Below, piece after piece: positions 17,801 to 62,760 of a DNA stretch of 64,000 nucleotides. Source of the stretch: Bacteroidales bacterium (GTDB lineage: Bacteria; Bacteroidota; Bacteroidia; Bacteroidales; WCHB1-69); assembly GCA_017540505.1 (NCBI GenBank), contig JAFYAW010000030.1:62001-126000 (forward strand), given 5' to 3'. The position numbers were made by a program, and so were the translations under genes. The stretch's first letter is position 1; every line of letters starts with the position of its first letter. A model generated the notes under the pieces. The model was given only the letters and a program-made list of their open reading frames with translations, did no database searches and had not been told where the DNA came from.

Positions 17801-17914
17801 AGACGGTGCTTTTATGCTCCCAGACCATTCATTCAAAATCCGTTTCTTTCTTCGTCATTGGTTTTAGAATTTCACCGGTTAGCGCAGAAGGTATGGTGAC
17901 ACTCAATTTTTTTG

Positions 17915-17922
17915 TATTTTTG
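17915..17922 (+). promoter_or_regulatory. -7 box (TATTTTTG) of MPHHR paralogue 1
   Basis: TATTTTTG followed by 'cacctgta' lies 20 bases before the ATG at 17943. The same 'cacctg' context recurs before the other paralogues. Confidence 0.65.
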
Positions 17923-17942
17923 CACCTGTATAATTTACCGTT

Positions 17943-18860: not shown

Positions 18861-18882
18861 AAAACTAATCACTAAAAAATCG

Positions 18883-18890
18883 TACTTTTG
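18883..18890 (+). promoter_or_regulatory. -7 box (TACTTTTG) of galK
   Basis: TACTTTTG followed by 'cccc', 55 bases before the galK ATG. The leader is longer than usual for this genome. Confidence 0.6.
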
Positions 18891-18945
18891 CCCCCTAAAA
18901 AACCGAGACGCGACATGCCACGTCTACAAGGGTAAAACTCCGACT

Positions 18946-20055: not shown

Positions 20056-20124
20056 TAGTTTAGAGTTGAGAGTTTAGGGTTGAGAGTGCGAGCGTATGGA
20101 CGTGCGGCAGAAAATAATATTTTG

Positions 20125-20132
20125 TATTTTCG
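20125..20132 (+). promoter_or_regulatory. Variant -7 box (TATTTTCG) of MPHHR paralogue 2
   Basis: TTTGTATTTTCGCACCTGTA, almost the same as the sequence before paralogue 1 but with CG instead of TG in the box. It lies 21 bases before the ATG at 20154. Confidence 0.55.
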
Positions 20133-20153
20133 CACCTGTAAAAAAATCCCGCT

Positions 20154-21806
20154 ATGCCTCACCACCGAAATGCACATCTAATCATGGTCTTCGCGGCTTT
20201 GCTGCTTCTACTGGCGGCCTGCTCCAAGCAGCCAGAACAACAATTCTCGGTGGTTCAGGATACTCTTCACATTAACGCGCCAGATTATTTCACTCCATAC
20301 ACCAGAATTGAGTTGCAATGGTCTGTCCCATATCAAGATTGGTATTTCTGCATCTTTGAGGAAAATGATATCTACGAACCTTGGAGAAACCAATATGTCT
20401 TTTTAGCCATCTCCAAAGACGGAAAACACATACGGAAACTGGATTGCCCCAAAGAATTCAATCTTCATACTTCTGGTGATTTATATGTGAGGCAGGACAA
20501 CCTGTTCCTTTATATACCCTACGATCTGTTCGATCCTCGCTATTACTATTTTGACCTGAAACAATGGAAATGGAAACCTGCCAAGGGTGAATCCAATCTC
20601 CTTTATGAAGATGATGCTTATCAAATTGCAGCCGTGAATATGGGCGAATGGGGCAGTTACACCTGGTTTATAGATAAGCAGCGCAATAATGACGAAATGC
20701 GAAAAAAACATACTCAATATGTTAGACCTTATGTAGTATCCGAAAGAATAATCCGATCTGACAGCATCTACTACTTTGTGCATCCGTATGGCATTTACAC
20801 CACTTCTGTCAAGGGCCCCAAAGGTGTGCTTTGCGACGACTCCACATCTTATCGGATTGGGGAGGAAAGGGACTATCGGTTTATAGGCGGATTGTTTTAT
20901 TGGCCGATACTCAATGAAACAGGCATCAAAGTGGATTCATTTCCCTCATATTTCCATTTTACTGGTAAAAAGGTTGTTGGGAACGATTCATGGAAGGAGA
21001 GTACGGTGACAAGATATGATTCGATAACGCAATATGATACCGTTATCAACCAGGCATTCCTTAGCAATAACCAACTTTACTGTATTGTTACTACGCCAAA
21101 GAACTCTTTTATTTCACAAATCAGGGATGGAAAGATGATTCCTGAATTGGATTTGGGCGAACGATATGACTTTTCCCGTCATCGAGGGTCGTTTCGTAGT
21201 GTGAATCTGGCCGACAACAAGTGTTTTCTCCAATTTGAAGAAGATTTTTCCACGTATGGCCTGATGGATGTGGAGGATCGAACAATCCGTATCCGCCATT
21301 TGGTTATCCACCAGGACACGTTGCCCTTTGTAGGGACGGACAATGTAAAGCCGTTGTTGGAGTTTCTGTTGATGCGTTTGGGTAATCTGTCCTTGGATGA
21401 ATTGCGCCGCTATGAAACACAATTGGGCGGAATATGCTATCAGAAATATCGCGACCCCAACGGTTATTTCCCGGATGAATATCAAAATAAAGACAAATAT
21501 TTCAGTCCGACATTTTACAAAAGAGTCAATGGCCAGCAGACTTTTGTCACCGAATATTGTGTCTCTATGTCTGACTCAATGGTCAAAAAGGTCTTTATGG
21601 AATGGGTAAAGACGAATTTCTTCAACTCTCACCTGTATAGATATAAAACGTGTGACAACTTAGCTGCCAAATGTGCGGAAATATCCGAAATCGTTTCTAA
21701 GATTACCGGCACAAAACCCAAACGGGAAAAGAATTACTTGAAATGGACTTTCAATGGCCTTACTATCAAACTGTACGAAAAGGATGGGCGTATGGTGATC
21801 TCTTGA
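20154..21806 (+). CDS. MPHHR-family lipoprotein, paralogue 2 (long form)
   Basis: A 550-residue protein, MPHHRNAHLIMVFAALLLLLAAC, in which LLAAC is a lipobox, so this copy is probably a lipoprotein; its relatives have WPARAQ or similar instead. The N-terminal about 370 residues match paralogue 3 throughout: WYFCIFEENDIYEPW, GEWGSYTWFID, IIRSDSIYYFVHP, LYCIVTTPKNSFISQI, LDVEDRTIRI. The C-terminal 180 residues form a second domain beginning GTDNVKPLLEFLL and including PDEYQNKDKYFSPTFYKRV, DSMVKKVFMEWVKTNFFNS and a final strand pair. No catalytic motif was recognised. It is transcribed from its own variant promoter. Confidence 0.6.
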   Translation: MPHHRNAHLIMVFAALLLLLAACSKQPEQQFSVVQDTLHINAPDYFTPYTRIELQWSVPYQDWYFCIFEENDIYEPWRNQYVFLAISKDGKHIRKLDCPKEFNLHTSGDLYVRQDNLFLYIPYDLFDPRYYYFDLKQWKWKPAKGESNLLYEDDAYQIAAVNMGEWGSYTWFIDKQRNNDEMRKKHTQYVRPYVVSERIIRSDSIYYFVHPYGIYTTSVKGPKGVLCDDSTSYRIGEERDYRFIGGLFYWPILNETGIKVDSFPSYFHFTGKKVVGNDSWKESTVTRYDSITQYDTVINQAFLSNNQLYCIVTTPKNSFISQIRDGKMIPELDLGERYDFSRHRGSFRSVNLADNKCFLQFEEDFSTYGLMDVEDRTIRIRHLVIHQDTLPFVGTDNVKPLLEFLLMRLGNLSLDELRRYETQLGGICYQKYRDPNGYFPDEYQNKDKYFSPTFYKRVNGQQTFVTEYCVSMSDSMVKKVFMEWVKTNFFNSHLYRYKTCDNLAAKCAEISEIVSKITGTKPKREKNYLKWTFNGLTIKLYEKDGRMVIS

Positions 21807-21878
21807 GTTTCGTTTCCCGCAGAAGGCGCAGATTTTATTGGGCGCATATACACACAATATGCGAAGATAAAAAAATCG

Positions 21879-21886
21879 TATTTTCG
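21879..21886 (+). promoter_or_regulatory. Variant -7 box (TATTTTCG) of MPHHR paralogue 3
   Basis: TATTTTCG followed by 'cacctg', 20 bases before the ATG at 21907. The upstream intergenic sequence (ccgcagaaggcgcagatt, then gcgcatatacacac) is repeated before paralogue 4, so promoter and gene were duplicated together. Confidence 0.55.
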
Positions 21887-21906
21887 CACCTGAAATTAAT
21901 CCCGCT

Positions 21907-23496
21907 ATGCCTCACCACCGACATATACATCTGATCATGGTCTTCGCTGCTGCATTGCTGCTGTTGGCGGCGTGGCCTGCGCGGGCGCAACAGCATTTCA
22001 CCGTGATACGGGATACCGTTCACATTAACGCAGCGGACTTTTTCAGCCCCATTTCCGCGGTGTCGCTTGGGTGGACGGCTAAATATCAAGGCTGGTACTT
22101 TTGCATTTTCGAGGAAGAGGACATTTTCGAGCCCTGGAAAGGGAACCGAATCCTGTTGGCGATTTCTGAGGACGGACATAAGGTCAGAAGAGTGGATTTC
22201 CCTTCCCAAAAATTCAGCGTTTACGGTGACTTTTTCGTCCGGGACGGGAATTTGATTCTTAAACCCTATCATACGGAGATTGCCGGGAATGGATTCGTCT
22301 TTGACAACAAAAATTGGTCGTGGAAACCAACAAATTCCATTTCTGATATTATTTACAAAGATGATTTATATACTGTTGCCTTTAAGGACTATGGAGAATG
22401 GGGAGATTACACATGGTTTATAAATAACAGGTTTAAAACCCAATATCTCCGACCGGAAGGTTTCTCCAGAATAATTAGAATTGACAGCGTCTATTATTTT
22501 GTGCATCAGAACCGGATTGATTCCGTTCCCGTATCTGACACGATGGGTTGTCGAATCAGGGGCTTATGGTATTATGATAATTCAAACATGTGGTTGTTTG
22601 AGCGCGAAATGTACAGAGACAACTCGGGAATGCTCACAACCCTTTCCTCAGTTAAGCCACAACCGTCAATTTTTATAACCAAGGGGAAAAAGGAGCCTGT
22701 TGCTTTTTTGCCGGGGATCATCTACGATACATTATTAGAGCACGCATTTAGTGTCGGGAAGCAGATATTCTCCATAGTCACAACCCCTCAAAAGACCATT
22801 CTTGCAACGGTAAGGGGTGGCCAGTTGCAGGAGGTGGTTGACTTTGGTCGCAAATACAACTTCATCCGAAAATATGACTGCTATCGGGGTGTAAATGTCG
22901 CCAACAACCAAAGCCTTCTCGGATTTAAGGAGAGCTACCATACCTCCGGTATCATAGATGTGGAGGATTCGGTTATCAGAATCCTAAACATCACACACAA
23001 TCAGGATACGCTTCATGCTTTGGGCACAGACAATGTCGGGAAACTGTTAGAATTCCTCTTAAAAAAACTTAATCGTTTGTCAACAAAGGTTTTGGATGGT
23101 TGTGAAAGGCGATTGGGCGGAACCGGTAATTATCAGTTCGAACCCATTGAAAACGGTTATTTCCCTGATGAGTATAAGAATGCTGCAGAATATGTTGGAA
23201 CGCAATACTACAAAGTGGTTGATGACACCCAGACACTTGTCACCTCGTACTGTATCCATCTGCCGGATTCGATGGTCAAAGGTGTTTATTTAGAGTGGGT
23301 TAAAACTAACTTTTTCAACTCAGCCACCCACTGGGTGGCTCCTGCCAAGGGCAATGAGGCAAAATGCACAGAGCTTTCCGATATTGTCACACATCTCACC
23401 GGCAAAAAGCCCAAACAGGTGGAAAAACATCTGGAATGGGAATACAAGGGTTTGATAATCAAGTTATACGGTGACGCCCGTCTGGTCATCTACTGA
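21907..23496 (+). CDS. MPHHR-family secreted protein, paralogue 3 (long form)
   Basis: A 529-residue protein with signal peptide MPHHRHIHLIMVFAAALLLLAAWPARAQ. It is the closest relative of paralogue 2 across both domains: WYFCIFEEEDIFEPW, GEWGDYTWFINN, YYFVHQNRIDS, FSIVTTPQKTILATV, GTDNVGKLLEFLLKKL, NGYFPDEYKN, DSMVKGVYLEWVKTNFFNS. The lipobox cysteine of paralogue 2 is absent. The function is unknown. The strong similarity and head-to-tail order point to recent local duplication. Confidence 0.6.
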   Translation: MPHHRHIHLIMVFAAALLLLAAWPARAQQHFTVIRDTVHINAADFFSPISAVSLGWTAKYQGWYFCIFEEEDIFEPWKGNRILLAISEDGHKVRRVDFPSQKFSVYGDFFVRDGNLILKPYHTEIAGNGFVFDNKNWSWKPTNSISDIIYKDDLYTVAFKDYGEWGDYTWFINNRFKTQYLRPEGFSRIIRIDSVYYFVHQNRIDSVPVSDTMGCRIRGLWYYDNSNMWLFEREMYRDNSGMLTTLSSVKPQPSIFITKGKKEPVAFLPGIIYDTLLEHAFSVGKQIFSIVTTPQKTILATVRGGQLQEVVDFGRKYNFIRKYDCYRGVNVANNQSLLGFKESYHTSGIIDVEDSVIRILNITHNQDTLHALGTDNVGKLLEFLLKKLNRLSTKVLDGCERRLGGTGNYQFEPIENGYFPDEYKNAAEYVGTQYYKVVDDTQTLVTSYCIHLPDSMVKGVYLEWVKTNFFNSATHWVAPAKGNEAKCTELSDIVTHLTGKKPKQVEKHLEWEYKGLIIKLYGDARLVIY

Positions 23497-23575
23497 GTTA
23501 AGGTTACCGCAGAACGCGCAGATTGGCGCAGAAATTATTATGCGCATATACGCACAACACGTGGAGAAAAAAATG

Positions 23576-23583
23576 TATTTTCG
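23576..23583 (+). promoter_or_regulatory. Variant -7 box (TATTTTCG) of MPHHR paralogue 4
   Basis: TATTTTCG followed by 'cacc', 20 bases before the ATG at 23604. This placement fixes that ATG as the start, since the longer frame from 23523 runs through the promoter. Confidence 0.55.
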
Positions 23584-23603
23584 CACCGTTTAAAAAGCCC
23601 ACT

Positions 23604-24734
23604 ATGCCTCACCACCGATATACACATCTGGTTATGCTCCTCGTTGCTTTGCTACTGCTACTGGCGGCACGGCCTGTGCGGGCGCAGCAGCTGTTCTCGG
23701 TAACGACGGACACTATTCCGATTGCATTGGACGATTTGGGGTCCTATTCAAACTTTCATGTGGCTTCGGCCATTAAGTACCACAACTATTACTACTTAAA
23801 TGTCAAGGCCGTTGACGCTACAAACCATTACAAAAACATGATTCTGGCCGTCTCGACTGACGGGAAACAGCAGAAGATTGTGGATTTTCCTAACACCGGA
23901 ATGGGATGGTATGCGAAAAGATTGTATGTCAGGAATGATACTTTGTTTTTAAGCTGTGACATTTTCGAGGAAAGCTCCTTTGGGCACTATTTTGACGACT
24001 CTCTATGGCAATGGTATTTCTCGGATGCTCTAACAGATGTGGTCTATGAAGATGATCTTTATTCTGCATCTTTCCGACTGATTCCCGGATGCAGATGGTC
24101 ACAATTATGGTTTACTGAAAAGCAAAGCACCTTCCACATGGAGACCAAAAACGGTTGGCTTCAGCCAGAATACACCCATCGTAAGTATATGGTTTACAAC
24201 AAACCATTTCGAATTGTCAGAAACGAGGATACCTACTATTTCGTTTACCAACGTGGGGTAAGCAAAGTGGATGTTCACCAACGACCAGGCATTGAATTGC
24301 GAAAAAGCATTTACCATGACAATATCTGGGATAACACTTTGGGGCAATATGGTTATGGGTCTTATTTCCCGTATAATGAGGATGATGATGTCATCCATCT
24401 ATTCGGCAATTATCAGCAGCCATGGTGGACAAAAACCGATACGTTTTTCCAGCAGGCCTTTTGCTACAACGGGCAGATGTATTATGTGGTCACCACCCCA
24501 AAAGGAACCAGTATTGCACAAATTGTTGAAGGGCAACTGAAAGAGGTAATTCCATTGTTATCGAATGAAATTCACATATCCTCTAACCAAAACATTATAG
24601 ACGAAAATTGCCTGATCTGCTTCAACCCCTCACACGAGGCTTTAGGTGTCATTGACATTGACTGCGGTCATGTGCGGATCTTGTATTTCTCGATGCAACC
24701 GAAAACGCTACCGTATAAAGTGAGGTTTCAATAA
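23604..24734 (+). CDS. MPHHR-family secreted protein, paralogue 4 (short form)
   Basis: A 376-residue protein with signal peptide MPHHRYTHLVMLLVALLLLLAARPVRAQ. It shares the N-terminal domain of the family (VYEDDLYSASF, NGWLQPEYTHRKY, IVRNEDTYYFVYQRG, QAFCYNGQMYYVVTTPKGTSIAQIVEGQLKEV). It ends after the DIDCGHVRILYFS block without the second domain. Its NGWLQPEYTHRKYM motif is closest to paralogue 1 (NGWLQYEPVHRRYL). So the array contains two short forms (1 and 4) on the outside and two long forms (2 and 3) inside. The function is unknown. Confidence 0.6.
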   Translation: MPHHRYTHLVMLLVALLLLLAARPVRAQQLFSVTTDTIPIALDDLGSYSNFHVASAIKYHNYYYLNVKAVDATNHYKNMILAVSTDGKQQKIVDFPNTGMGWYAKRLYVRNDTLFLSCDIFEESSFGHYFDDSLWQWYFSDALTDVVYEDDLYSASFRLIPGCRWSQLWFTEKQSTFHMETKNGWLQPEYTHRKYMVYNKPFRIVRNEDTYYFVYQRGVSKVDVHQRPGIELRKSIYHDNIWDNTLGQYGYGSYFPYNEDDDVIHLFGNYQQPWWTKTDTFFQQAFCYNGQMYYVVTTPKGTSIAQIVEGQLKEVIPLLSNEIHISSNQNIIDENCLICFNPSHEALGVIDIDCGHVRILYFSMQPKTLPYKVRFQ

Positions 24735-28764: not shown

Positions 28765-29331
28765 ATGGAAGATTTGGAAATGATGACGTTAAGTGCCTTG
28801 TTTTTAGACCGTGACGGCGTGCTCAACGAGCAGATTGTGGACGGCTATGTCATGCAGTGGGAGGACTTTGTCTTCAAAGAGGGCGTGTTCGAGGCGTTGC
28901 GTCTTTTGCGCGGGAAGTGCGACCGCATGCTGCTGGTGACCAACCAACAGTGCGTGGGGAAGGGGCTTTGCTCGATGGAGGATATTGAACTTATCCACGC
29001 ACGTATGCAGGCGGAACTGTACGAGCACGGGTGCGCCTTCGACCGGATATATTGCTGTCCCCATCTTGCGGCTGAAAACTGCTCCTGTCGGAAACCTCGT
29101 CCCGGCATGGCGATGCGGGCATTTGCCGATTATCCCGACATTGTCCCGGCCCGCTCGGTGATGGTGGGTGACAGTCTGTCGGATATGCGCTTTGCGCAGA
29201 ATGCCGGCCTGATTCCCGTGCATGTGGGCGCAAAACGTGATCTGGAATTTAATGAGATTCAGAAGATTACACAATATCATTTTGAAACACTGTTTGATTT
29301 TGCCCGTTATCTACATACGCCCCAACTATGA
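28765..29331 (+). CDS. D-glycero-D-manno-heptose 1,7-bisphosphate phosphatase-like HAD hydrolase
   Basis: A 188-residue HAD-IIIA phosphatase. Motif I is ALFLDRDGVLNEQ with nucleophile and acid aspartates, motif II VTNQQCVGKG, and motif III plus IV KPRPGM ... VGDSLSDMRFAQNAGL. A Cys/His zinc loop CCPHLAAENCSCRKP is characteristic of GmhB-type enzymes, which dephosphorylate heptose bisphosphate in LPS-core or S-layer sugar synthesis. ATG 28765 follows the promoter properly; in-frame ATGs at 28780 and 28783 are alternatives. The stop overlaps the start of the acyltransferase gene (4 bases), so the two genes form a lipid A/LPS-type pair. Confidence 0.82.
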   Translation: MEDLEMMTLSALFLDRDGVLNEQIVDGYVMQWEDFVFKEGVFEALRLLRGKCDRMLLVTNQQCVGKGLCSMEDIELIHARMQAELYEHGCAFDRIYCCPHLAAENCSCRKPRPGMAMRAFADYPDIVPARSVMVGDSLSDMRFAQNAGLIPVHVGAKRDLEFNEIQKITQYHFETLFDFARYLHTPQL

Positions 29332-30203
29332 TCACCCGCCTACTGATATACCTGTTCTGCTATCCATTGGCACTGCTGCCGATGTGTTTGCTCTATGTAC
29401 TTGCGGGACCGCTGTATCTGGTTCTTAACTACATGATTCGCTATCGTCGCAAGGTTATTGATGAGAACTTGAAAAACTCGTTTCCGGAGAAATCCGCCTC
29501 CGAACTTCGGCGCCTGCGCAACCGCTACTATTGGCATCTGTCGCAGATTGTCGTGGAGATGATCAAGATGCTGGTGATGAGCCGCCGCAACCTGAAACGC
29601 CGCTATCACTGTTCAAACCCCGAACTTGTAAATCAATATTTCCGGCAGGGCAAAAGTGTTATTCTGATGTCTTCGCATTTCAACAACTGGGAATGGATGA
29701 TCTTAGCGTTGGATGAGATGTTCGAACACCATGGGGTGGGGGTGGGCAAGCCCAATTCCGACAAGGGGTTTGAGAAGACCGTCAACCGCGCCCGTACCCG
29801 CTACGGCACGGAGGTGGTCTTCGCTGATACAGTGCGTGAAACATTCGAACATTATGAAAGCCAACATATTCCAGCCGCTTATATGATGCTCAGTGACCAG
29901 TCGCCTAACAGCAAAAAACGCTGTTATGTGACGCAATTTCTTAACCAGACTACTGGCGTGATTTTCGGGGCGGAGCATTTTGCCCGCAAATACAACATCC
30001 CCGTGCTCTACTATGAGGTGGTCAAGGAGCGCATGGGCCACTATCGTGTGGATGTGCATGTCATCGCGGACAATCCTGCCGAATGGGACGAGTACGCCAT
30101 CACCCAGAAATATGTGGAATTCCTCGAAAAAACCATTCGCCGCGACCCGCCGTACTGGCTATGGAGCCACCGCCGGTGGAAATTTGTTTTCGAAGAAGAT
30201 TAA
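29328..30203 (+). CDS. Lipid A-type lysophospholipid acyltransferase (LpxL/HtrB-like)
   Basis: A 291-residue inner-membrane protein with an N-terminal hydrophobic anchor (residues about 3-33). The HtrB/LpxL acyltransferase motif follows: SSHFNNWEWM, a His-x4-acidic catalytic pair, at about residue 110. Later come PNSDKGFEKTVNRARTRYG, a substrate-binding segment, MMLSDQSPNSKKRC and YWLWSHRRWKF at the C-terminus, as in the family. It should transfer a fatty acyl chain to a lipid A precursor. It overlaps the GmhB-like gene by 4 bases. Confidence 0.85.
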   Translation: MITRLLIYLFCYPLALLPMCLLYVLAGPLYLVLNYMIRYRRKVIDENLKNSFPEKSASELRRLRNRYYWHLSQIVVEMIKMLVMSRRNLKRRYHCSNPELVNQYFRQGKSVILMSSHFNNWEWMILALDEMFEHHGVGVGKPNSDKGFEKTVNRARTRYGTEVVFADTVRETFEHYESQHIPAAYMMLSDQSPNSKKRCYVTQFLNQTTGVIFGAEHFARKYNIPVLYYEVVKERMGHYRVDVHVIADNPAEWDEYAITQKYVEFLEKTIRRDPPYWLWSHRRWKFVFEED

Positions 30204-30245
30204 AGTCCTTTCCACCTCCTTGTCGTTGATGAAGATGGTTGCCCT

Positions 30246-30461
30246 GCGGTAGAACAGATGCCGCCGCACACCTCACGTCCCGACAGAGGCAAAAGCTTGG
30301 TAGGAACAGGCCCGCATGCAATATCGCGGCGCGGCAGGCGCGTGCCCGTGAAATGTCTCGAAGAGACATCATCCCAATAATCCCAGACCAAGCGGCTGAG
30401 CGCGGTCTGGGGCTGGACGGCACACCTCGTACCTCCACGCGGCGCGGCAGGCGCGTGAGGC
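30246..30461. repeat. GC-rich dispersed repeat cluster left of the SIR2 island
   Basis: The 392-base gap after the acyltransferase gene has no gene but holds a GC-rich repeat. A 20-base unit (CGCGGCGCGGCAGGCGCGTG) occurs at 30325-30344 and again at 30438-30457. The second copy extends to a 24-base block (30438-30461) whose exact reverse complement is at 33898-33921. About 105 bases from 30246 match, with many differences, the reverse complement of 33906-34012, including GGCAAAAG and GGTAGGAAC. Apparent open frames here are artefacts of the GC-rich repeat. Confidence 0.75.
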
Positions 30462-30561
30462 AGAGAACGGAATGGAACCGCCGCGAAAGGACGAACATGT
30501 GCATTAGAAAACATCAAATAAAAACAACCTTGCATCCTTGCGTTTTTATGGTAAATAATAT

Positions 30562-30569
30562 TATCTTTG
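30562..30569 (+). promoter_or_regulatory. -7 box (TATCTTTG) of the SIR2 island operon
   Basis: TATCTTTG followed by 'c', 27 bases before the ATG at 30596. A T-rich element lies 19 bases upstream of it. It lies after the repeat cluster, so the two-gene unit carries its own promoter. Confidence 0.65.
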
Positions 30570-30595
30570 CAATATAATTAGAAGAACTCATCAAT

Positions 30596-32569
30596 ATGTC
30601 AAAAGAAATTAAGCAAGATAAGAAATCCATTAGTGCAGCCAGCGAATCCTATCCCGAAAATTGGCGTTATCTTTTCCCAATAGAGCTTTGGGATCAGTCT
30701 TTTGAAAAATTGCTGTTATTTTTTTTGAAAAGTTTTATTATTAATATTATTGGAATTACTATTATTATTTTGTCTGTTGTCGTTTTTGCTGCACCTCTCA
30801 TAGTTGGAATCATAATTTCTCGATGTACCAAATTAGGTTTTATTGTCTTTTTATCATTCCTTTTACAGATTGCTTGGGGAATGTGTCTTATAGATTTTAT
30901 ATTTATACTATTCGAAATATTGGCCTACAATTTCTCCTCCTTATACAAAGCTGCCAAGGGATTGTTTCATTACAAAACCATCCATGAATACATTGATTTC
31001 ATTCAATATTTATGCAGAATAGATCAAAACACGAGCACGATTTGTAATAGTATTACTTCTAATATGTCACCTTCAATGAACAAACTAATTAGAGGGACGG
31101 GAAAAGGTCCAAGAAGGGGGAAGTACAATAGGGCCGATTTCAGTTCAGACATTGTATTTTTCCGAAGCGTATTACAGGAAAAGCAAAAACTTCAAAATTT
31201 GTTTCTCAAAAAAAAAGAAGAACTAATCGAAACAGCATATTTAAAAGAACAAAAATGTGATTTTGTGTGTGGGCTTGCTTGGTGGGAAAATTGTATAACA
31301 ATAGGTCATAGACAATTTCACTGGACGTACAAAACTGATGATTCCATAAATGTGGCTTGTGAGTTCTATCGACGTTCATATAATCGAATTCCTGAAAAAT
31401 GGATGTTGTATTTTCAGCAGTATGAGAATGAATTCCCTATTTTCACAAAAGAGCCTGTAGATTTCTCAAAGAATTTCACAATTTATATATCAGATTTGGG
31501 AGAGTATTCTGCAGAAGAATATTTTACCAATTTTATTTCAAAAATTTCAAAATTATCCAATCCAAGGATACACTTGGTCTCGTTTAAAACAAATCTAGAT
31601 TTCTTTCAAATAATTCTTTTGGGAAAAGAGTTTGAGGAGCAACAAGACAACATTTGGGGTCGTAACGACAATGAAAATAAGCCTGTTTTTCATCATATTA
31701 TAATTTTTGAGGAGGTTTCAACGGATGAAGTTCATGAGTACCTATTTTCAAAGCTTAAAATAAATGAATGGCCCCCAAGCCATACTGTTTCTGTACTTAT
31801 TTTATTTTTAAAAACCTCCGAAGAAGAATTCAGTACTATTATTGAGGAAAATTACAACGCTCGAATGGAACGTGAAACATTAAGACTTCAAGAAGAAAAG
31901 AAGAGAGAAGAGGAACGTAAGAAAAAAGACGAGGAAATAAGAATTGCAAAAGAAGAACACGAAAATTTTGTCAAAAGAATACATCAGGCAGTAAGACAAT
32001 GGTCAAAAATCAAAAATATCCCATCCCATTCGTTTATTCCATATTTTCCAAATAAAACATTACACACTTTTATTCAACAACGTGCCCAAGAGGTAGTTTT
32101 AGATTTCAAAAATGGTGATAGTTTTGTCCAAGAGCCATTTATAAAACAACTTGTCTCGTTTCTGAAAACAACCTTCGAAAATGATTTAACAAAAATGACT
32201 TTTGTTTGTATTCCTGCTTCAAACATAAGAGACAATGATAAACGCTATAGATATTTCAGTGAAAAAATATGTGAGACAACTGGTATGCAGAACGCTTTCG
32301 AACATATCAGAATTATAGAAAGTGCAACCTCAAAGCATCTTGGTGGAACATCTGCTCATTTATTGTATGATTCTGAGTATTTCAATGAAAAACACATTGT
32401 ACTTTTTGATGACATTATCACAAGTGGAAACACAATTTCCTCTATGAAACAAGAACTTGAGCGTTATGGTGCCGACGTTATTTGTGCAATCTCATTTGGC
32501 ATCACTACGCAAGACTCTTATTATAGCGATATTAAGTTGAAAGAGTTGATCAGGCCTTATGACATATGA
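30596..32569 (+). CDS. Membrane-anchored coiled-coil protein with C-terminal phosphoribosyltransferase domain
   Basis: A 657-residue protein much richer in AT than its neighbours. After a short soluble start it has two strong hydrophobic helices (about residues 45-74 and 79-111), predicted to anchor it in the inner membrane. A middle region (about 130-420) is unrecognised. It is followed by a highly charged coiled coil (about 423-462, rich in E/K/R). The last 170 residues resemble a type I phosphoribosyltransferase domain: FVCIPASNI, then the PRPP-binding motif VLFDDIITSGNT with Asp605 and Asp606, and GADVICAISFG. In the related ComF-like domains of defence loci the IPAS and DDIITSG motifs are similarly arranged. 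The gene overlaps the following SIR2 gene by 4 bases (ATGA), indicating coupled translation and a joint function. A role in phage defence is inferred from context. Confidence 0.7.
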   Translation: MSKEIKQDKKSISAASESYPENWRYLFPIELWDQSFEKLLLFFLKSFIINIIGITIIILSVVVFAAPLIVGIIISRCTKLGFIVFLSFLLQIAWGMCLIDFIFILFEILAYNFSSLYKAAKGLFHYKTIHEYIDFIQYLCRIDQNTSTICNSITSNMSPSMNKLIRGTGKGPRRGKYNRADFSSDIVFFRSVLQEKQKLQNLFLKKKEELIETAYLKEQKCDFVCGLAWWENCITIGHRQFHWTYKTDDSINVACEFYRRSYNRIPEKWMLYFQQYENEFPIFTKEPVDFSKNFTIYISDLGEYSAEEYFTNFISKISKLSNPRIHLVSFKTNLDFFQIILLGKEFEEQQDNIWGRNDNENKPVFHHIIIFEEVSTDEVHEYLFSKLKINEWPPSHTVSVLILFLKTSEEEFSTIIEENYNARMERETLRLQEEKKREEERKKKDEEIRIAKEEHENFVKRIHQAVRQWSKIKNIPSHSFIPYFPNKTLHTFIQQRAQEVVLDFKNGDSFVQEPFIKQLVSFLKTTFENDLTKMTFVCIPASNIRDNDKRYRYFSEKICETTGMQNAFEHIRIIESATSKHLGGTSAHLLYDSEYFNEKHIVLFDDIITSGNTISSMKQELERYGADVICAISFGITTQDSYYSDIKLKELIRPYDI

Positions 32570-33807
32570 ATTTTTCGTATAAAACAACAGTAATGGATAG
32601 TTTATTAGAGTATAATGGCGAACACGTCATCAGAAAAACATGTTGTAAAAGACCAAACATCTCAATTATTCTTGGTGCAGGTTTTTCGGTTCCTATGGGT
32701 TATCCTATGGGAAAGGATATCAACAATGTGCTTTCACACTTTGATTTTAATCAAACCGATATTTCTATGTCTGGTAGATTATCCCGGTTAAATATATCTA
32801 ATCCTCAAGCCTACCAATCCCATTGCTATGTGGAATTCTGCCATCGGATTATAGATACTTATATCACTAATCGCGGATTTTTTGATTACGAAGAATTCTT
32901 TGATTTTATCCGTAGTAATGAGATTTTTGAGCAAACGTATCAAGATTCAACAAAGGATTTAATTTCTAATAAGAATTATGGTCAATTTGTTTTTGCTTTA
33001 AATAATATATTGCCTCAAATGATTGAATGTGTTATAAAAGATAAAGATGGGGATATTTGGTATGATAATAAGCCTTTTCATTTGGGACCTGTTTTTGAAT
33101 ACGATGTGTTTCTGCAAGTATTGTCAAGATGGAGTGATGACAATACCATTAACGTGCATACTCTAAATCACGATATGGTGTTTGAATCATTTGACAAGAC
33201 AGAATATTTATCTGATAAAATATGTGATGGATTCGCTATTTATGGGTCCAAGTATTTTGGAGAACTTAAAACCAACGAAGGACGACTGTATAATGTTCAA
33301 TTGGAATATTATACAGGCAAGTATGATAAGCCTATTCGGTTATACAAACTACATGGCAGTTTAGATTATGTCATGAATTGGAAACAACAGAATTCAGTTA
33401 TGGTGCCTGATAAATGTATAAAGATACGGCCAGATATTGATTTGACATCAATTAAACACGAGAGTACTCATAGGGAGAAATTTGATGAATATCAAGGCAC
33501 ATGTCATTCTTATTTTTTGTCAGGCGTAACAAGTAAAATCAAACAATATAACAATCCATTTTTTTACAACTTGCACAAACAATTTCATAAAAATCTAAGT
33601 TCCTCCCAAAAGTTAGTAATTATTGGTTATGGAGGCCATGATACAGGGATAAACGAAGCAATCTATAAGAATTTCAAACATCATAATAAAACAACCATAA
33701 TTGTTGATCCAAAACCATCGCCAAATTTGATGTTGTTAAAAAATAATCTTGAAGCAAAATTAATCGAAAAAGACATCTCTAAGATATCTCCGAGTGACTT
33801 ATTATGA
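32566..33807 (+). CDS. SIR2-family protein (predicted NAD-acting effector)
   Basis: A 413-residue AT-rich gene. SIR2-like motifs are in order: the NAD-binding loop ILGAGFS (residues 35-41), HTLNHD with the T-x-N-x-D pattern at 199-203, and the catalytic-type histidine His263 in LYKLHGSLDYV. KLVIIGYGGHDTGINEAI closes the Rossmann fold. Proteins of this kind lacking classical deacetylase zinc cysteines are common NADase effectors of anti-phage systems (for example Thoeris ThsA, DSR, SIR2-pAgo). By analogy this one may deplete NAD+ on infection; that is inference. The start at 32566 overlaps the previous stop; an alternative ATG is at 32593. No signal peptide or membrane helix is present. Confidence 0.8.
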   Translation: MNFSYKTTVMDSLLEYNGEHVIRKTCCKRPNISIILGAGFSVPMGYPMGKDINNVLSHFDFNQTDISMSGRLSRLNISNPQAYQSHCYVEFCHRIIDTYITNRGFFDYEEFFDFIRSNEIFEQTYQDSTKDLISNKNYGQFVFALNNILPQMIECVIKDKDGDIWYDNKPFHLGPVFEYDVFLQVLSRWSDDNTINVHTLNHDMVFESFDKTEYLSDKICDGFAIYGSKYFGELKTNEGRLYNVQLEYYTGKYDKPIRLYKLHGSLDYVMNWKQQNSVMVPDKCIKIRPDIDLTSIKHESTHREKFDEYQGTCHSYFLSGVTSKIKQYNNPFFYNLHKQFHKNLSSSQKLVIIGYGGHDTGINEAIYKNFKHHNKTTIIVDPKPSPNLMLLKNNLEAKLIEKDISKISPSDLL

Positions 33808-33897
33808 TTAATTAAATAAATGACAAATTATCCTATTACAAGTTTTTTTTCTACAACCATATCATTTCCTTTTTCGCGGCGTGCACACCTTTTCTCC

Positions 33898-34012
33898 GCC
33901 TCACGCGCCTGCCGCGCCGCGATGACACGTATGGACGCATCGTTCCTACCGATCTTTTGCCCCTATCGGGGCATTCATGTGTGCGTGGGCATATTTTCTA
34001 CCGGGCTTTCGT
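33898..34012. repeat. GC-rich dispersed repeat right of the SIR2 island (inverted relative to the left copy)
   Basis: Bases 33898-33921 are the exact reverse complement of 30438-30461. From 33906 to 34012 the sequence aligns, diverged, with the reverse complement of 30246-30350. It also carries two small hairpins, GCCCC/GGGGC around 33959-33972 and GTCCC/GGGAC around 34011-34024. Together with the left copy it brackets the two-gene island. Open frames crossing it are not credible genes. Confidence 0.75.
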
Positions 34013-34180
34013 CCCTGTCGGGACATTTTTATTTTTGATGGCTGCATTGCAACCGAAAGGTTTAAAGGCCAGCCTGATATCAGCTTACCGAGACCGTGCG
34101 GCATATGCACACTGCATTGGCGTCATCTTCTTGGTGATAAACTTTTACATAAATAAAATTAAACTATAAATATTTATTGT

Positions 34181-34284
34181 ATTTTTGCAAAATTAAAAAC
34201 ACGCTGAGGATGAATATACCATCAGTTGGAATCAAACGTTTTGGTGAGAAAATCCAATATTGCATTACCGTAATAAAGGCATAA
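34181..34284 (+). other. Promoter-like box and possible 24-residue peptide
   Basis: In the 820-base region after the SIR2 gene there is a TATTTTTG box at 34181-34188. It is followed 22 bases later by an ATG (34210) with a GCTGAGG sequence just before it, opening a 24-codon frame, MNIPSVGIKRFGEKIQYCITVIKA. The next 100 bases have coding-like pieces in other frames (KGIKKEIDRLARSKGHHQIMDA) interrupted by stops, so this may be the decayed start of an unrecognised gene rather than a functional peptide. Confidence 0.25.
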
Positions 34285-34471
34285 AAAAAGAAATCGACAG
34301 GTTGGCTCGCTCGAAAGGTCATCACCAAATTATGGACGCCTGAACAGGACTGTTCCCCTATTGATTTCCGGCTGCAAAAATATAAAAATTATATTTAGAA
34401 AACAATTATGAATAAAATTTTTTACAAAACACATAACACGTAAACCGTAAACCGCAAATCGAAAAAAACAC

Positions 34472-34577
34472 TATCTTTGCCCCCGATATGCCGAGGTATG
34501 TTCACTTTAAATCCCGGCACTGCCAAATCATCTTGATGGCGCTTTTTGAACTTGATCTGCATCTGTTCTTTAAGTAA
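34472..34577 (+). other. Promoter box and possible 29-residue leader peptide before the nitroreductase gene
   Basis: TATCTTTG at 34472-34479 followed by 'cccc' looks like a good Bacteroidetes promoter but lies 149 bases before the nitroreductase ATG. Inside this leader, nine bases after the box, an ATG at 34488 opens 29 codons (MPRYVHFKSRHCQ...HLFFK) ending at 34577. It could be a leader peptide, an untranslated leader or a gene remnant. The rest of 34041-34627 shows nothing else recognisable. Confidence 0.3.
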
Positions 34578-34627
34578 TGCGTGTATCAGGATGAATGTCA
34601 TTTAGTTGAAAATTATAAAAATATATT

Positions 34628-35383
34628 ATGTCTGACGTATTAGAAACCCTTTACCACCACGTGAGCGTCCGCGAATATACGGACCAGAAAGTGGATGAAA
34701 CTGTTTTAAACCAAATATTGAAGGCCGCGTGCAGTGGCTCCACGATGGGCAACATGCAGCTGTTCAGCATCATCGTGACCGAAGATGATGAGATGAAACG
34801 CAAAATGGCCCCCTTCCATTTCAACCAGCCGATGGCCACACAGGCCCCGTTGATCCTGACGTTTTGTGCCGATTTCCGCCGTTTCAACCGCTATTGCGAG
34901 TTCCGCGATGCGGAGACGGAGGCGTACAGCAACCTGCAAAGCTACCATTGGGCCGTCACCGATGCGCTGATTGCCGCCCAAAACGCCTGCGTGGCTGCCG
35001 AATCCCTCGGTTTAGGCTTCTGCTGGTTGGGGACCATCACCTACAATGCCGATAAATTCATAGAAGTGCTGGAACTTCCCCGCCATGTGGTGCCGGTGGC
35101 CTGCATTACGATGGGCTATCCGAAAGCGAAACCCGCTCTTACACAGAAACTTCCGGTGGAGGCGATGGTGCATCGCGAAACCTATCACGATTATGACAAG
35201 GCAACTATTGACCGGCTGTATGCGGAAAAAGAGGCTTCGGAAGAGACTAAAAAGCTGTTGGAAGAGAACCAATTGCCCAATCTGGCCCAGATTTTCACCC
35301 AACGACGTTATGTGAAAAAGGATAACGAATATTTTGCAGAGGTTTTGAGTGAAACATTGAAAAAACAGGGCTTTCTGAAATAA
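34628..35383 (+). CDS. Nitroreductase-family NAD(P)H-dependent flavin oxidoreductase
   Basis: A 251-residue FMN enzyme. The typical N-terminal SVREYTDQKVDETVLNQILKAACSGSTMGNMQ binds FMN phosphate. A central AVTDALIAAQNACVAAESLGLGFCWLGTI and the final VACITMGYP are also as in NfsA-like nitroreductases. The C-terminal extension (about residues 185-251) with YVKKDNEYFAEVL is also common in that subgroup. Substrates could be quinones or nitro compounds. It is cytoplasmic. The beta-mannosidase gene follows after 23 bases. Confidence 0.88.
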   Translation: MSDVLETLYHHVSVREYTDQKVDETVLNQILKAACSGSTMGNMQLFSIIVTEDDEMKRKMAPFHFNQPMATQAPLILTFCADFRRFNRYCEFRDAETEAYSNLQSYHWAVTDALIAAQNACVAAESLGLGFCWLGTITYNADKFIEVLELPRHVVPVACITMGYPKAKPALTQKLPVEAMVHRETYHDYDKATIDRLYAEKEASEETKKLLEENQLPNLAQIFTQRRYVKKDNEYFAEVLSETLKKQGFLK

Positions 35384-35406
35384 AACATAATTTTTTTCGG
35401 CAAAAT

Positions 35407-38046
35407 ATGAGGAACCCCATCTCTTTTTGCATTATCCTGTGGGTAATCTGCCTGCTGTCGGGATGTCAGAAACAGAAACCGTCAACGGAGGACACGATGG
35501 TGTTGGATTCCCGTTATGGGTGTGTGCGCAACGAGTGGCAGTTCCTGTACAATGGACAATGGTATCCCGCCACCGTGCCAGGCAACATTCACGACGACCT
35601 GCTCCGCAACGGATTGATTCCCGACCCCTTCGTGGGCACCAACGAGGATTCCGTGCAATGGGTCTCCGACAGCATCTGGACCTACCGGCTCATCTTTGAT
35701 GAGAATTGCGCCGATGAAAAACAGTTTACGCATAAGGAGTTGATATTCGATGGGTTGGACACTTATACTGAAGTATTACTTAATGGCAGGAGACTTTCCA
35801 ATACGGATGGTGACACCTTGGCCAACAACATGTTTCGGAAATGGGTTTTTCCGGTGGAGGATATTCTAAAAAAGAAAAATAACGAGTTAGTTGTACGTTT
35901 CCTGCCAACGGCTCCGTTCGACAGCGTGGCCGCCTCGCGATTGCCATATCGTATGCCGGACAATCGTGTCTTCACCCGAAAGGCACAATACGAATCGGGG
36001 TGGGACTGGGGCCCGCGGCTCAATACCTGCGGCATCTGGAAGGATGTGTGCCTGCGCCGCTGGAACGGTTTCCGCCTGGAGGATGTCTATGTGCGCGACA
36101 CCAAGCCCACCCTCGACACCAACGGCGTGTGGGAGACCAGCGTGGAGGTAACGATTGTGTCGGATGCCAAGCGAAAAGTGCGCGTCCACGTGGATAACTA
36201 CGAAGGGAACATCACAAAATCATCCCGCCGCGTGACGTTGAAGGAGGGCACCAACAAAGTATCCATCCCGGTGAATATAAAGCAGCCGCGGCTGTGGTGG
36301 CCCAACGGCATGGGCGATCCTCATTTGTACTATTTTTATGTGTCTGTGGATGACCACCATTGTAGCAGCCATACGATAGCTCCCGTGGAACACGGTTTGC
36401 GCACCATCGAGCTCCGTCGTGAAAAGGATTCGATAGGGGAGAGCTTCGCCTTTGTGGTGAACGGCAAGCCCTGCTTCATGCGTGGAGCCAACTGGATTCC
36501 GGCCTCTTCCTATCCGGGCACTCTCAAGGCCGGCTTTGATGACGATTATGTTTACTATCATCTGCTCAAAGCCGCACAGGATGTGAACATGAACATGATT
36601 CGCGTCTGGGGTGGCGGCCTGTATGAGCATGAGGAGTTTTACAGAACCTGTGACCGCTTGGGACTGTTGGTGTGGCAGGATTTCATGTTCGCCTGCAATC
36701 CCTATCCGGCAGACAAGACGTTTCTGGATAATGTGCGTCGTGAGGCGGAGGAACAGGTGGTGCGTCTGCGCAACCATCCCTGTCTGGCCCTCTGGAACGG
36801 CAACAACGAGGTACACAACGGCTTGGAGGACTGGGGCTGGCTGGCAGCCCTTGGCTGGACAGAGTCCCAATACCAGGAGTTGATGGGGAATTATAGTTTG
36901 TTGTTCGAAAAAATGATTTCCGATGTGGTACGGGAAAACGCGTCCAATACGCCCTATATTCCCACGTCGCCCACGTTCGGGTGGGGACATCCCGAGTGTA
37001 CAACGCACGGATGCTCGCACTATTGGGGCGTGTGGTGGGGAGAACTGCCCTTCGAGGTATGGTGGGACAAGACGGGCCGCTTCATGGCCGAGTACGGGTT
37101 CCAGTCCTATCCCGAGATGGCCACATGGCGTACCGTGGAGGACAGTGCCCGATTTGACCCGCATGCGCTGTCATTAGGTTCCGCTACGATGCGACAGCAT
37201 CAGAAACATGGTCGTGGTGTGGAGATTATCCGCAAGGCCATGAAGGAGTATTTCGGTTACGAACGCACTACCGACTTGGGCGAGTTTGCGCACGTGAGTC
37301 AGTTAGTGCAGGCATACGGCATCACGCGGGCCATTGACGCGCACCGCATCCGCCGCGACCGCTGCCGGGGCACACTCTACTGGCAACTCAACGACTGCTG
37401 GCCGGTGGCCTCCTGGAGCAGTATCGATTATACAGGTCGTTGGAAGGCCCTGCATTACCGTCTGCGCGAAGCATACGCCAATGTGGCCGTTGCCACCCGT
37501 CTGCTTGAGGGTGATGCGTTGGAGATCTTTGTGGTCAATGATTCCTTACGGGAGGTGGCGGGCGAACTCCAAATCGCCCTGTATTCCACCGATGGGAATC
37601 GGAAAGTCGAGTTGCCAACGCGTAAGATTTCCGTTCCTTCGGATGGTGTGAGCAAGGGAATTGTCATGGATTCGAAGGCGTTGGACGGTCTTCGTCCGGA
37701 GCAGGCCGTATTGCATATCCGGTTTGTGGTTGGCGGCAAGGTGCTGGCCGAGAAAGTGGATTTCCTCGTCCTGCCCGCACGCTTGGAGCTGAAAAAACAG
37801 GAAATCAGCCGTGAGATGCGCCATTACGGTGATTACGACGAGTTTGCAGAGGTTACGCTTGTGTCGCCGGTGTTCCAGTATGGTGTCTTCGTAGAGGAGG
37901 TTTCCGGTAAGAACATATTTTGTTCGGACAATTATTTCCATCTTCTGCCGGGCGTGCCGAAAACGGTGCATATCGATATTGCGTATGATGCGGAGACGGA
38001 TGGCAAACCGACGTTCCAGGTGAGATCATTATATACCAGTAAATAA
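35407..38046 (+). CDS. GH2 beta-mannosidase (lipoprotein)
   Basis: An 879-residue enzyme with a lipoprotein signal peptide (MRNPISFCIILWVICLLSGC). It has the GH2 layout: sugar-binding beta domain with GNIHDDLLRNGLIPDPF, an immunoglobulin-like domain, and a TIM barrel with MRGANWIPASSY. Acid/base Glu468 is in WNGNNEVHNG and nucleophile Glu562 in FMAEYGFQSYPE. Two C-terminal beta domains follow. WIPASSY and the GNNE motif are those of beta-mannosidases rather than beta-galactosidases. Expected role: releasing mannose from beta-manno-oligosaccharides in the periplasm or at the outer membrane. It follows the nitroreductase gene closely and ends at a terminator hairpin. Confidence 0.92.
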   Translation: MRNPISFCIILWVICLLSGCQKQKPSTEDTMVLDSRYGCVRNEWQFLYNGQWYPATVPGNIHDDLLRNGLIPDPFVGTNEDSVQWVSDSIWTYRLIFDENCADEKQFTHKELIFDGLDTYTEVLLNGRRLSNTDGDTLANNMFRKWVFPVEDILKKKNNELVVRFLPTAPFDSVAASRLPYRMPDNRVFTRKAQYESGWDWGPRLNTCGIWKDVCLRRWNGFRLEDVYVRDTKPTLDTNGVWETSVEVTIVSDAKRKVRVHVDNYEGNITKSSRRVTLKEGTNKVSIPVNIKQPRLWWPNGMGDPHLYYFYVSVDDHHCSSHTIAPVEHGLRTIELRREKDSIGESFAFVVNGKPCFMRGANWIPASSYPGTLKAGFDDDYVYYHLLKAAQDVNMNMIRVWGGGLYEHEEFYRTCDRLGLLVWQDFMFACNPYPADKTFLDNVRREAEEQVVRLRNHPCLALWNGNNEVHNGLEDWGWLAALGWTESQYQELMGNYSLLFEKMISDVVRENASNTPYIPTSPTFGWGHPECTTHGCSHYWGVWWGELPFEVWWDKTGRFMAEYGFQSYPEMATWRTVEDSARFDPHALSLGSATMRQHQKHGRGVEIIRKAMKEYFGYERTTDLGEFAHVSQLVQAYGITRAIDAHRIRRDRCRGTLYWQLNDCWPVASWSSIDYTGRWKALHYRLREAYANVAVATRLLEGDALEIFVVNDSLREVAGELQIALYSTDGNRKVELPTRKISVPSDGVSKGIVMDSKALDGLRPEQAVLHIRFVVGGKVLAEKVDFLVLPARLELKKQEISREMRHYGDYDEFAEVTLVSPVFQYGVFVEEVSGKNIFCSDNYFHLLPGVPKTVHIDIAYDAETDGKPTFQVRSLYTSK

Positions 38047-60949: not shown

Positions 60950-60983
60950 TTTAAAATGTGCTATTCTTTATTCTATTAGATAA

Positions 60984-61149: not shown

Positions 61150-61173
61150 TAATCATACAGCAAAACAATAAAT

Positions 61174-61853: not shown

Positions 61854-61908
61854 TCCGTTGTGTTTTAATTTGCAAAATTTAATTCTGATGTCTTGGGCGG
61901 CCGATGTT

Positions 61909-62733: not shown

Positions 62734-62752
62734 TCTCTTATGTTTTAGTTTG

Positions 62753-62760
62753 CAAAAATA
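62753..62760 (-). promoter_or_regulatory. -7 box (TATTTTTG) of the RhuM-PLD gene
   Basis: On the minus strand TATTTTTG followed by 'c', 19 bases before ATG 62733. Divergent from the box at 62831. Confidence 0.6.

What the first reader, a model, noticed from the sequence alone, without database searches (positions are those of the whole stretch)
30596..33807. Two-gene SIR2 plus membrane-anchored phosphoribosyltransferase unit: candidate undescribed defence system
Seen: an AT-rich gene for a protein with two N-terminal transmembrane helices, a charged coiled coil and a C-terminal PRTase domain (DDIITSGNT). It overlaps by 4 bases (ATGA) a SIR2-family gene with GAGFS, HTLNHD, LHGS and GYGGHD motifs. 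The pair has its own promoter. Known: SIR2-like effectors deplete NAD+ in several anti-phage systems, and PRTase-like domains bind PRPP or nucleotide ligands. Inference: the membrane/PRTase protein may sense infection or damaged envelope or a nucleotide signal and control the SIR2 NADase. I do not know a named system with exactly this pair.
Basis: partly seen in the sequence, partly recalled or inferred. Interest (0 to 1): 0.82.

Follow-up and report, generated by a model that had tools for sequence, protein, structure and literature searches.

The report
Acquired SIR2 and membrane-phosphoribosyltransferase gene pair
A bacterium carries a small, apparently foreign insert with two overlapping genes, a probable NAD-destroying enzyme and a membrane-tied relative of a known anti-phage toxin; both look like phage-defence parts, but this exact combination was seen only in this one genome.

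Summary
Two AT-rich genes (32% GC; window 50%) overlap by ATGA at 30596-33807: a 657-aa protein with a hydrophobic N-terminal block, a charged stretch and a C-terminal phosphoribosyltransferase (PRTase), then a 413-aa SIR2 with the NADase motifs. They are the only substantial genes of a ~4.4-kb stretch missing from the three closest congeners.

The PRTase matches the toxin side of ShosTA/PsyrTA (PADLOC ShosT 1.7e-11). In many relatives the next gene encodes DprA or SLOG, with the same ATGA junction in 5 of 9 PsyrTA-like loci; here SIR2 occupies that slot. The SIR2 belongs to an unnamed group (13 relatives read; the two active-site residues are kept in all). Seven of 13 have a recognised defence-type gene in the stretch read (5 within ~1.3 kb); others are solo, beside a recombinase or in a viral contig. 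None of the 13 has a clade PRTase nearby, and none of the PRTase loci read has this SIR2: the pairing is a singleton in what was searched.

Best reading: an acquired abortive-infection unit with SIR2 as NADase effector, controlled or aided by the membrane PRTase protein. A new variant of known kinds; not shown to be recurrent, and no activity was tested.

The parts
30190..34640 (.). Stretch absent from the three closest congeners, read as an insert (boundaries approximate)
   Evidence: In G005, G024 and G012 the nitroreductase gene follows the acyltransferase directly; alignment breaks at about 30190 and resumes at about 34640.
30562..30569 (+). Candidate Bacteroidetes-type -7 promoter element TATCTTTG
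   Evidence: Pattern match, 26 nt upstream of the first ATG; consensus recalled, not evidence of function.
30596..32569 (+). 657-aa membrane protein with C-terminal ShosT/PsyrT-class phosphoribosyltransferase domain (P0001)
30701..30943 (+). Codons 36-116: hydrophobic block, two to four membrane spans
   Evidence: Hydropathy.
31994..32566 (+). PRTase region (codons 467-657) with CIPAS (538) and DDIITSGNT (605) motifs
   Evidence: Alignment A3 with stand-alone PRTases; PADLOC ShosT match at residues 504-646.
32566..32569 (+). ATGA: start of the second gene and stop of the first
   Evidence: Sequence; same ATGA in 5 of 9 RecQ-PRTase/DprA-like pairs.
32566..33807 (+). 413-aa SIR2-family protein (P0002), predicted NADase; N201 and H263 as the active-site pair
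30277..30467 (+). GC-rich dispersed repeat copies, left of the pair
   Evidence: inverted with respect to copies at 33892-34024; 9 exact copies of the 15-base core in the genome, 3 of them at this locus.
33892..34024 (-). GC-rich dispersed repeat copies, right of the pair

Best explanation
A horizontally acquired, co-translated two-gene phage-defence unit of the abortive-infection type. The SIR2 protein is the NAD+-cleaving effector. The membrane-anchored PRTase protein holds it at the inner membrane and switches it on during infection, using its membrane/middle part and its PRPP- or nucleotide-binding PRTase domain as the sensor. Shown: gene structure, family membership, kept catalytic motifs, presence of both genes in one stretch that close relatives lack. 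Inferred: insertion rather than loss in the relatives, NADase activity (from family), physical partnership (from the ATGA coupling and joint presence), and the direction sensor -> effector.
For: Both genes lie in one ~4.4-kb stretch absent from the three closest congeners, with little else in it, similar GC (32.6 and 31.7%) and an ATGA junction. SIR2: 37 invariant columns in the 11-row alignment, including N201 and H263; both are also kept in the three relatives aligned later, so in all 13. The profile reaches PDB SIR2 entries 8yhx, 8j4u and 8w9l (the last two recalled as SIR2-HerA). In V. cholerae Nezha, changing an active-site N or H of the SIR2 abolished immunity (PMC11559045, passages). 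Recognised defence-type genes lie within about 1.3 kb of the SIR2 in 5 of 13 relatives (type III RM, Dnd/HerA-like, HKD-SNF2; type IIG RM; McrBC) and 4-8 kb away in two more (AriA-like, oligonucleotide cyclase). A multi-span membrane protein is encoded directly upstream in two of the 11 relatives whose upstream side could be read (G486, 26-bp gap; G844, 52-bp gap; hydropathy), so a membrane partner may be a recurring theme.
Against: The pair was found in one genome only: SIR2 in 1 of 40 genus and 1 of 104 family genomes, i.e. its own. 0 of 13 SIR2 relatives has a clade PRTase in the stretch read and several stand alone, so the SIR2 group does not need this partner. The membrane proteins of G486 and G844 are not similar to P0001. 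ShosT is reported as a toxin (review passage in PMC12593503), which argues against a pure sensor role. Neighbouring genes were tested selectively and no background rate of defence genes was measured.
Confidence: 0.42

Rival explanations
1. Dual-effector lock-out: both proteins are toxic enzymes. SIR2 destroys NAD+, and the ShosT-like PRTase consumes PRPP or spoils the nucleotide pool, which also blocks PRPP-dependent NAD+ rebuilding by host or phage.
For: PRTase of the ShosT/PsyrT class with a DDIITSGNT motif; ShosT is reported as phosphoribosyltransferase and pyrophosphatase that disturbs purine metabolism (review passage in PMC12593503; the primary paper was not seen); PDB holds chains named ShosT and ShosT_PRPP; phage ICP1_2001 counters a SIR2 system with NAD+-regenerating enzymes (PMC11559045, passages).
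Against: Nothing else in the insert looks like an antitoxin; two unguarded toxins would be hard to carry. The PRTase profile matches the PDB ShosT only over 38 positions at E 0.0027, and the window domain alone did not hit it at E 10; the PADLOC ShosT model has 237 positions and the PDB ShosT 432 residues, so that they are the same protein family was not checked. Pair never seen elsewhere.
Confidence: 0.2
2. Two independent genes that share an acquired stretch: a stand-alone SIR2 defence gene and an unrelated PRTase gene, adjacent by chance.
For: SIR2 relatives occur without an evident partner in G616, G623 and G809 and in a viral contig; no co-occurrence with a clade PRTase.
Against: ATGA overlap, similar base composition and joint presence at a site that is empty in the closest relatives.
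Confidence: 0.2
3. Toxin-antitoxin unit of ShosTA/PsyrTA logic in which the SIR2 replaces the DprA/SLOG protein as the Rossmann-fold guard of a membrane-anchored PRTase toxin.
For: In relatives of the PRTase the next gene is DprA-like (9 RecQ-PRTase loci; two tested match PsyrA at 1.6e-74 and 3.6e-72; also the tandem PRTases of G703) or SLOG (L005, L006, L033); 5 of the 9 have the identical ATGA junction; SIR2 sits in that slot.
Against: The SIR2 keeps its NADase residues and exists without the PRTase in other genomes, unlike an antitoxin. The slot is not always DprA/SLOG: in 13 viral-contig PRTases with a readable next gene, the 3 tested next genes are RadC-like, and the PRTases of G644 and G017 have neither beside them as far as tested or seen.
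Confidence: 0.13

Closest known systems
ShosTA (PRTase toxin ShosT + DprA-like ShosA)
   Same: PRTase domain of the same class (PADLOC ShosT 1.7e-11, residues 504-646), two-gene unit.
   Different: PADLOC's ShosT model has 237 positions, no room for the ~460-residue membrane/middle part of P0001; partner is SIR2 and matches no ShosA model. Whether the 432-residue PDB ShosT has a comparable N-terminal part was not examined.
PsyrTA / RqlHI (RecQ-PRTase + DprA-like)
   Same: PRTase at the C-terminus of a protein of similar size (open frames of 667-743 aa in the nine loci); downstream partner joined by ATGA in 5 of 9.
   Different: N-terminal part is a membrane/middle region, not a RecQ helicase; partner is SIR2.
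SIR2-HerA (Nezha) and other SIR2 NADase defence systems (DSR, Thoeris ThsA, SPARSA)
   Same: SIR2 motifs with N201 and H263; PADLOC best hits Aga_SIR2 and SIR2.
   Different: No HerA, TIR, pAgo/APAZ or large C-terminal region in the pair; partner is a membrane PRTase.
Type III retrons with PRTase effector
   Same: PRTase as effector gene (PMC12548924, passages).
   Different: Neither ORF of the insert is a reverse transcriptase, no Rfam match; P0001 matches the ShosT and PsyrT models but no retron PRTase model.

Membership tests
ShosTA | ShosT-type PRTase | tested here: met
   PADLOC ShosT 42.4 bits, E 1.7e-11; alignment A3. PADLOC's own cut-off was not available; match to the PDB ShosT is weak.
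ShosTA | DprA/SLOG-type ShosA partner | tested here: not met
   The partner matches SIR2 models and no ShosA, DprA or SLOG model.
PsyrTA/RqlHI | RecQ helicase fused to PRTase, DprA partner | tested here: not met
   PsyrT match only at residues 452-638; no helicase match in Pfam.
SIR2 NADase effector | NAD-binding and catalytic residues (GxGFS, N in TLN, H in LHGS, GY near the C-terminus) | tested here: met
   G37, G39, F40, S41, L200, N201, H263, G354 and Y355 invariant in 11 rows; T199 and G356 in at least 90%; N201 and H263 also in the three later relatives.
SIR2 NADase effector | NAD+ hydrolysis on infection | not testable with these tools
   Needs biochemistry.
SIR2-HerA (Nezha) | HerA ATPase partner | tested here: not met
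   P0001 has no HerA match; genes outside the insert are an acyltransferase and a nitroreductase (named by eye) that the closest congeners also have.
Thoeris | TIR protein plus SIR2-SLOG effector | tested here: not met
   No TIR or SLOG match in either protein.
Short pAgo SPARSA | SIR2-APAZ with adjacent pAgo | tested here: not met
   Best Aga_SIR2 match covers residues 191-399 of the SIR2; P0001 has no pAgo match.
Type III retron | Reverse transcriptase and msr-msd RNA | tested here: not met
   Neither of the two substantial ORFs matches a reverse transcriptase; no Rfam match at E 0.1 in 29000-36000.
A conserved two-gene system | The two genes recur together | tested here: not met
   0 of 13 SIR2 relatives, and none of 37 PRTase loci besides the window's own (38 locus ids read, some from the same place).

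The most novel reading that the evidence does not exclude
A hybrid of two defence lineages: a ShosT-class PRTase, put on a membrane anchor, whose DprA/SLOG guard has been exchanged for a catalytically intact SIR2, so that one trigger removes both NAD+ and PRPP (or its products) and blocks PRPP-dependent NAD+ rebuilding that phages can use as counter-defence.
Probability: 0.17. Interest if true: 0.8.

Novelty: new variant of a known kind. Interest (0 to 1): 0.5.

Why it matters
PRTase toxins and SIR2 NADases both act on phosphoribosyl/NAD metabolism but are described in separate systems in the papers I saw. A coupled pair would make testable whether a defence can shut the NAD+ salvage route while it drains NAD+, and whether a SIR2 protein can take the place of a DprA/SLOG guard. 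Independently, the work brings together an unnamed group of about 400-aa SIR2 proteins, often near defence genes, that mostly occurs without this partner and is worth testing on its own.

Tried and rejected
Close-relative scans of the 84,980-species genome collection with each protein confirmed no relative, and the SIR2 had no match in plasmid or phage records. P0001 matched 7 phage records, over the PRTase part only; their neighbours were not read. Viral-contig scans: P0001 none, window PRTase none, L073 and L075 SIR2 none, P0002 one short match in a 150-aa ORF (L004, not used), A1 one SIR2 (L072), L072 only itself, plasmid PRTase 15 loci. Single-sequence PDB searches gave nothing for the SIR2 and only weak hits for P0001. 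A faint DnaG helicase-binding-domain match in the middle region (P0001 against PDB E 0.31-0.33; L032 against Pfam E 0.0056) was judged too weak. Retron, DSR, SIR2-HerA and Thoeris were considered and dropped. No Rfam match. Sigma-70-like sites: 23 against 18.8 in shuffles; terminator-like sites: 8 against 3.1, one of them at 34011-34024 some 200 bp after the pair; neither was used. The GC-rich inverted flanking repeats were considered as ends of a mobile element and not adopted, because copies lie beside unrelated genes.

Rows dropped before the count of 13 SIR2 relatives: the weak hits (7 of its 10 non-own genomes) and (17 of its 23 non-own genomes). The weak places (9, in 8 stretches) were read by eye: one beside a TIR-like gene, two beside HerA-like genes; they were not tested with the PRTase profile. 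L080-L082 (weak places) were fetched and not analysed. Two of the 13 (G210, L072) lie at a contig end, so their upstream side is unknown. Two of the 13 (G897, G945) are distant (21-22% identity; 111-123 bits against 363 or more for the others). Of 34 plasmid records with a PRTase match two were opened. Of 15 viral PRTases two were cut off; of the other 13 next genes three were tested. Genes around the 13 SIR2 were tested selectively, chosen by eye.
Full report
OBSERVATION. The window lies in a 2.5-Mb draft genome of 51 contigs, 91% complete. No tool names the organism; Bacteroidota is my inference from the plasmid hits and promoter style. Two + strand ORFs at 30596-32569 (657 aa, P0001) and 32566-33807 (413 aa, P0002) share the bases ATGA. 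P0001 has a hydrophobic block at 36-116, a middle part matching no family convincingly, a charged stretch and a C-terminal PRTase domain with CIPAS (538) and DDIITSGNT (605). P0002 carries GAGFS (37), HTLNHD (198), LHGS (262) and GYGGHD (354). The pair has 32.3% GC against 49.6% for the window. Pfam matches are below gathering for both (PF00156 24.0 of 26.3 bits; SIR2_2 19.6 of 24.5); PADLOC gives ShosT E 1.7e-11 and PsyrT 3.2e-6 for P0001, Aga_SIR2 4e-14 and SIR2 3.7e-13 for P0002.

INSERTION. The gene before the pair, an acyltransferase (LpxL/HtrB-like by eye), was found in 36 of 40 genus genomes; 30 places became loci, one of them the window's own. In the three genomes with the most similar copy (G024 98%, G005 94%, G012 93% identity) the nitroreductase that follows the pair in the window comes directly after the acyltransferase; in G026 (69%) it follows after about 1.1 kb; in the other 25 loci it is not within the 1.5 kb held. 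Homology to the window breaks at about 30190 and resumes at about 34640. With the deviating GC and the absence of both genes from the other 39 genus genomes (for P0001 only a PRTase-domain match in G017) this reads as an insert of about 4.4 kb in the window genome. Its only substantial plausible genes are the pair; a 134-aa antisense ORF and smaller ones lie in the flanks. The flanks hold a GC-rich repeat, inverted on the two sides, of a dispersed family: 9 exact copies of its 15-base core in the genome, 3 of them here, others beside unrelated genes.

THE PRTase. Tblastn of P0001 against 72,556 plasmids gave 34 records; the 20 listed match residues 467-638 only; the two I opened have a PRTase gene of about 190 codons followed at once by a SLOG/DUF1273 gene. 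Seven phage records match over the same part. A profile of six such domains (A3) searched in 295 order genomes found 15 with E <= 1e-6, the window's own included, and 17 places. Reading the 17: 9 are RecQ-PRTase proteins followed by a DprA-like gene, by eye except two that were tested and match PsyrT at 1.6e-245 and 1.3e-238 and PsyrA at 1.6e-74 and 3.6e-72; one (G703) is a PRTase with a SLOG gene that matches YpsA and, weakly, ShosA; two, also in G703, are tandem PRTases followed by a DprA gene; one is the window; one (G644) is a 677-aa protein with N-terminal membrane segments and a C-terminal PRTase, aligning to P0001 only over the PRTase (E 2e-10), with no SIR2 next to it; three are short ComF-like PRTases by eye. 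In 5 of the 9 RecQ-PRTase loci the junction to the DprA-like gene is the same ATGA as in the window. In 13 of 15 viral-contig PRTases a next gene could be read, 1-19 bp downstream; the 3 tested are RadC-like. For P0001 residues 1-465 the 393 order genomes gave only two short doubtful matches, one with stops inside and one over the charged stretch.

THE SIR2. P0002 was found in its own genome only, among 40 genus and 104 family genomes; 11 of 395 phylum genomes had some match, 3 of them near full length besides the window. A profile (A1) found 24 of 393 order genomes at E <= 1e-3, 6 of them besides the window at E < 1e-40; a larger profile (A6) found 4 of 294 class genomes at E <= 1e-20, one of them the window; one viral contig was found. 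These give 13 relatives. Window plus ten were aligned: closest are G844 (42% identity) and G841 (39%); 37 columns are invariant, with N201 and H263 among them. The other three were aligned later: N201 and H263 are kept, but G897 and G945 are distant (21-22%) and lack H198. The A6 profile reaches PDB SIR2 entries 8yhx (1.4e-11), 8j4u (7.4e-7) and 8w9l (1.1e-5).

CONTEXT OF THE 13. Recognised defence-type genes within about 1.3 kb of the SIR2: 5 of 13 (G210 type III RM, G844 DndH/HerA-like and DndD-like, G945 HKD-SNF2 helicase; G227 type IIG RM; G948 McrBC). Further off in the stretch read: G841 an AriA-like ATPase at about 4 kb and G486 an oligonucleotide cyclase at about 8 kb, so 7 of 13 in all. 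Mobile or phage context: L072 viral contig, G897 recombinase, G945 integrase. G616, G623, G809 and G658 showed none in the genes tested, apart from a marginal PADLOC candidate match (4.2e-6) of the 1425-aa gene upstream in G658. A multi-span membrane protein is encoded directly upstream in G486 (341 aa) and G844 (205 aa), without Pfam or PADLOC match and not similar to P0001; the 1425-aa upstream protein of G658 has hydrophobic segments too. Genes were chosen for testing by eye and no background rate was measured, so the defence association is descriptive.

CO-OCCURRENCE. Profile A3 against all ORFs of the 13 SIR2 neighbourhoods plus the window found only P0001; profile A6 against all ORFs of 38 PRTase loci (L005, L006, L032-L035, L083-L099, L130-L144; some cover the same place) found only the window's own SIR2. 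Many of the PRTase loci hold 1.5 kb on each side, enough for the adjacent gene. So the pair is not recurrent in what I could read.

MECHANISM. The SIR2 most likely hydrolyses NAD+ (0.8, from residues and family). That the pair is one functional unit I put at about 0.6: joint presence in the insert, similar composition and ATGA coupling speak for it, absence elsewhere against. Given a unit, the role of the PRTase is open. PMC9122126 (passages) reports that a DprA-PRTase pair protects against T7 and lambda and suggests that DprA senses and the PRTase kills; PMC12593503 (passage) reports ShosT as phosphoribosyltransferase and pyrophosphatase with DNA-binding ShosA as antitoxin. By that precedent the PRTase would be an effector. 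The complete SIR2 and the membrane segments make a membrane sensor-regulator of SIR2 my first choice (0.42), with dual effector (0.2) and chance adjacency (0.2) next.

LITERATURE. Six searches that could have shown this pair listed no title or abstract start on a SIR2-PRTase system. Of ten papers (PMC9122126, PMC13092281, PMC10952713, PMC12548924, PMC7824862, PMC9503650, PMC5512222, PMC11559045, PMC12593503, PMC9519451) I saw only the passages shown by term. DefensePredictor (PMC13092281) names a PRTase in a figure legend without detail. Most preprints and subscription papers are not held, so absence in print is not established.

VERDICT. A real, apparently acquired, defence-like gene pair that joins two known component families in a way not seen elsewhere in the sampled genomes. 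New variant of a known kind; interest 0.5.

Noticed in passing
30277-30467, 33892-34024; also L145-L150: GC-rich dispersed repeat (core CGCGGCAGGCGCGTG, 9 exact copies in the genome), at several places as inverted pairs, here on both sides of the acquired pair; it may mark insertion-prone intergenic sites.
   Followed up: partly
L029, L030, L031, L072-L078, L160 (distant: L161, L162): An unnamed group of ~400-aa SIR2 proteins; the ten aligned share F-x-YE-x-F-x-D, H-x-LNHD and FL-x-G with the window protein. Several have no evident partner; candidate stand-alone NADase defence genes.
   Followed up: partly
L030:8023-14057: Possible three-gene unit: 1243-aa protein without Pfam or PADLOC match, 341-aa membrane protein, SIR2 of this group, in an ICE-like stretch (by eye); an oligonucleotide-cyclase gene (PADLOC 5e-80) lies at 17358-18170.
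   Followed up: partly
L075:6560-9768: 205-aa two-span membrane protein, SIR2 of this group, and a second divergent SIR2 in a row, next to split DndH/HerA-like and DndD-like genes.
   Followed up: partly
L077:12446-14253: AriA-like ATPase gene (PADLOC 7.2e-23) beside a 227-aa gene that looks TOPRIM-like by eye but has no PADLOC match; about 4 kb from the SIR2.
   Followed up: partly
L130-L142: Stand-alone PRTases in viral contigs followed 1-19 bp downstream by a ~190-200-aa gene (RadC-like in 3 of 3 tested), a different partner from DprA/SLOG.
   Followed up: partly
L032:5793-7826: 677-aa protein with N-terminal membrane segments and a C-terminal PRTase of the same clade, without SIR2 beside it: a second membrane-PRTase architecture.
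   Followed up: partly
17943-24734: Four genes (17943, 20154, 21907, 23523), with one other gene between the first two, whose products contain the same MPHHR... signal-peptide-like start; apparently a local expansion of an exported protein family.
   Followed up: no
60017-62763: Three neighbouring minus-strand ORFs that look like RhuM/ORF6N-type proteins (by eye), two sharing a near-identical N-terminal stretch.
   Followed up: no
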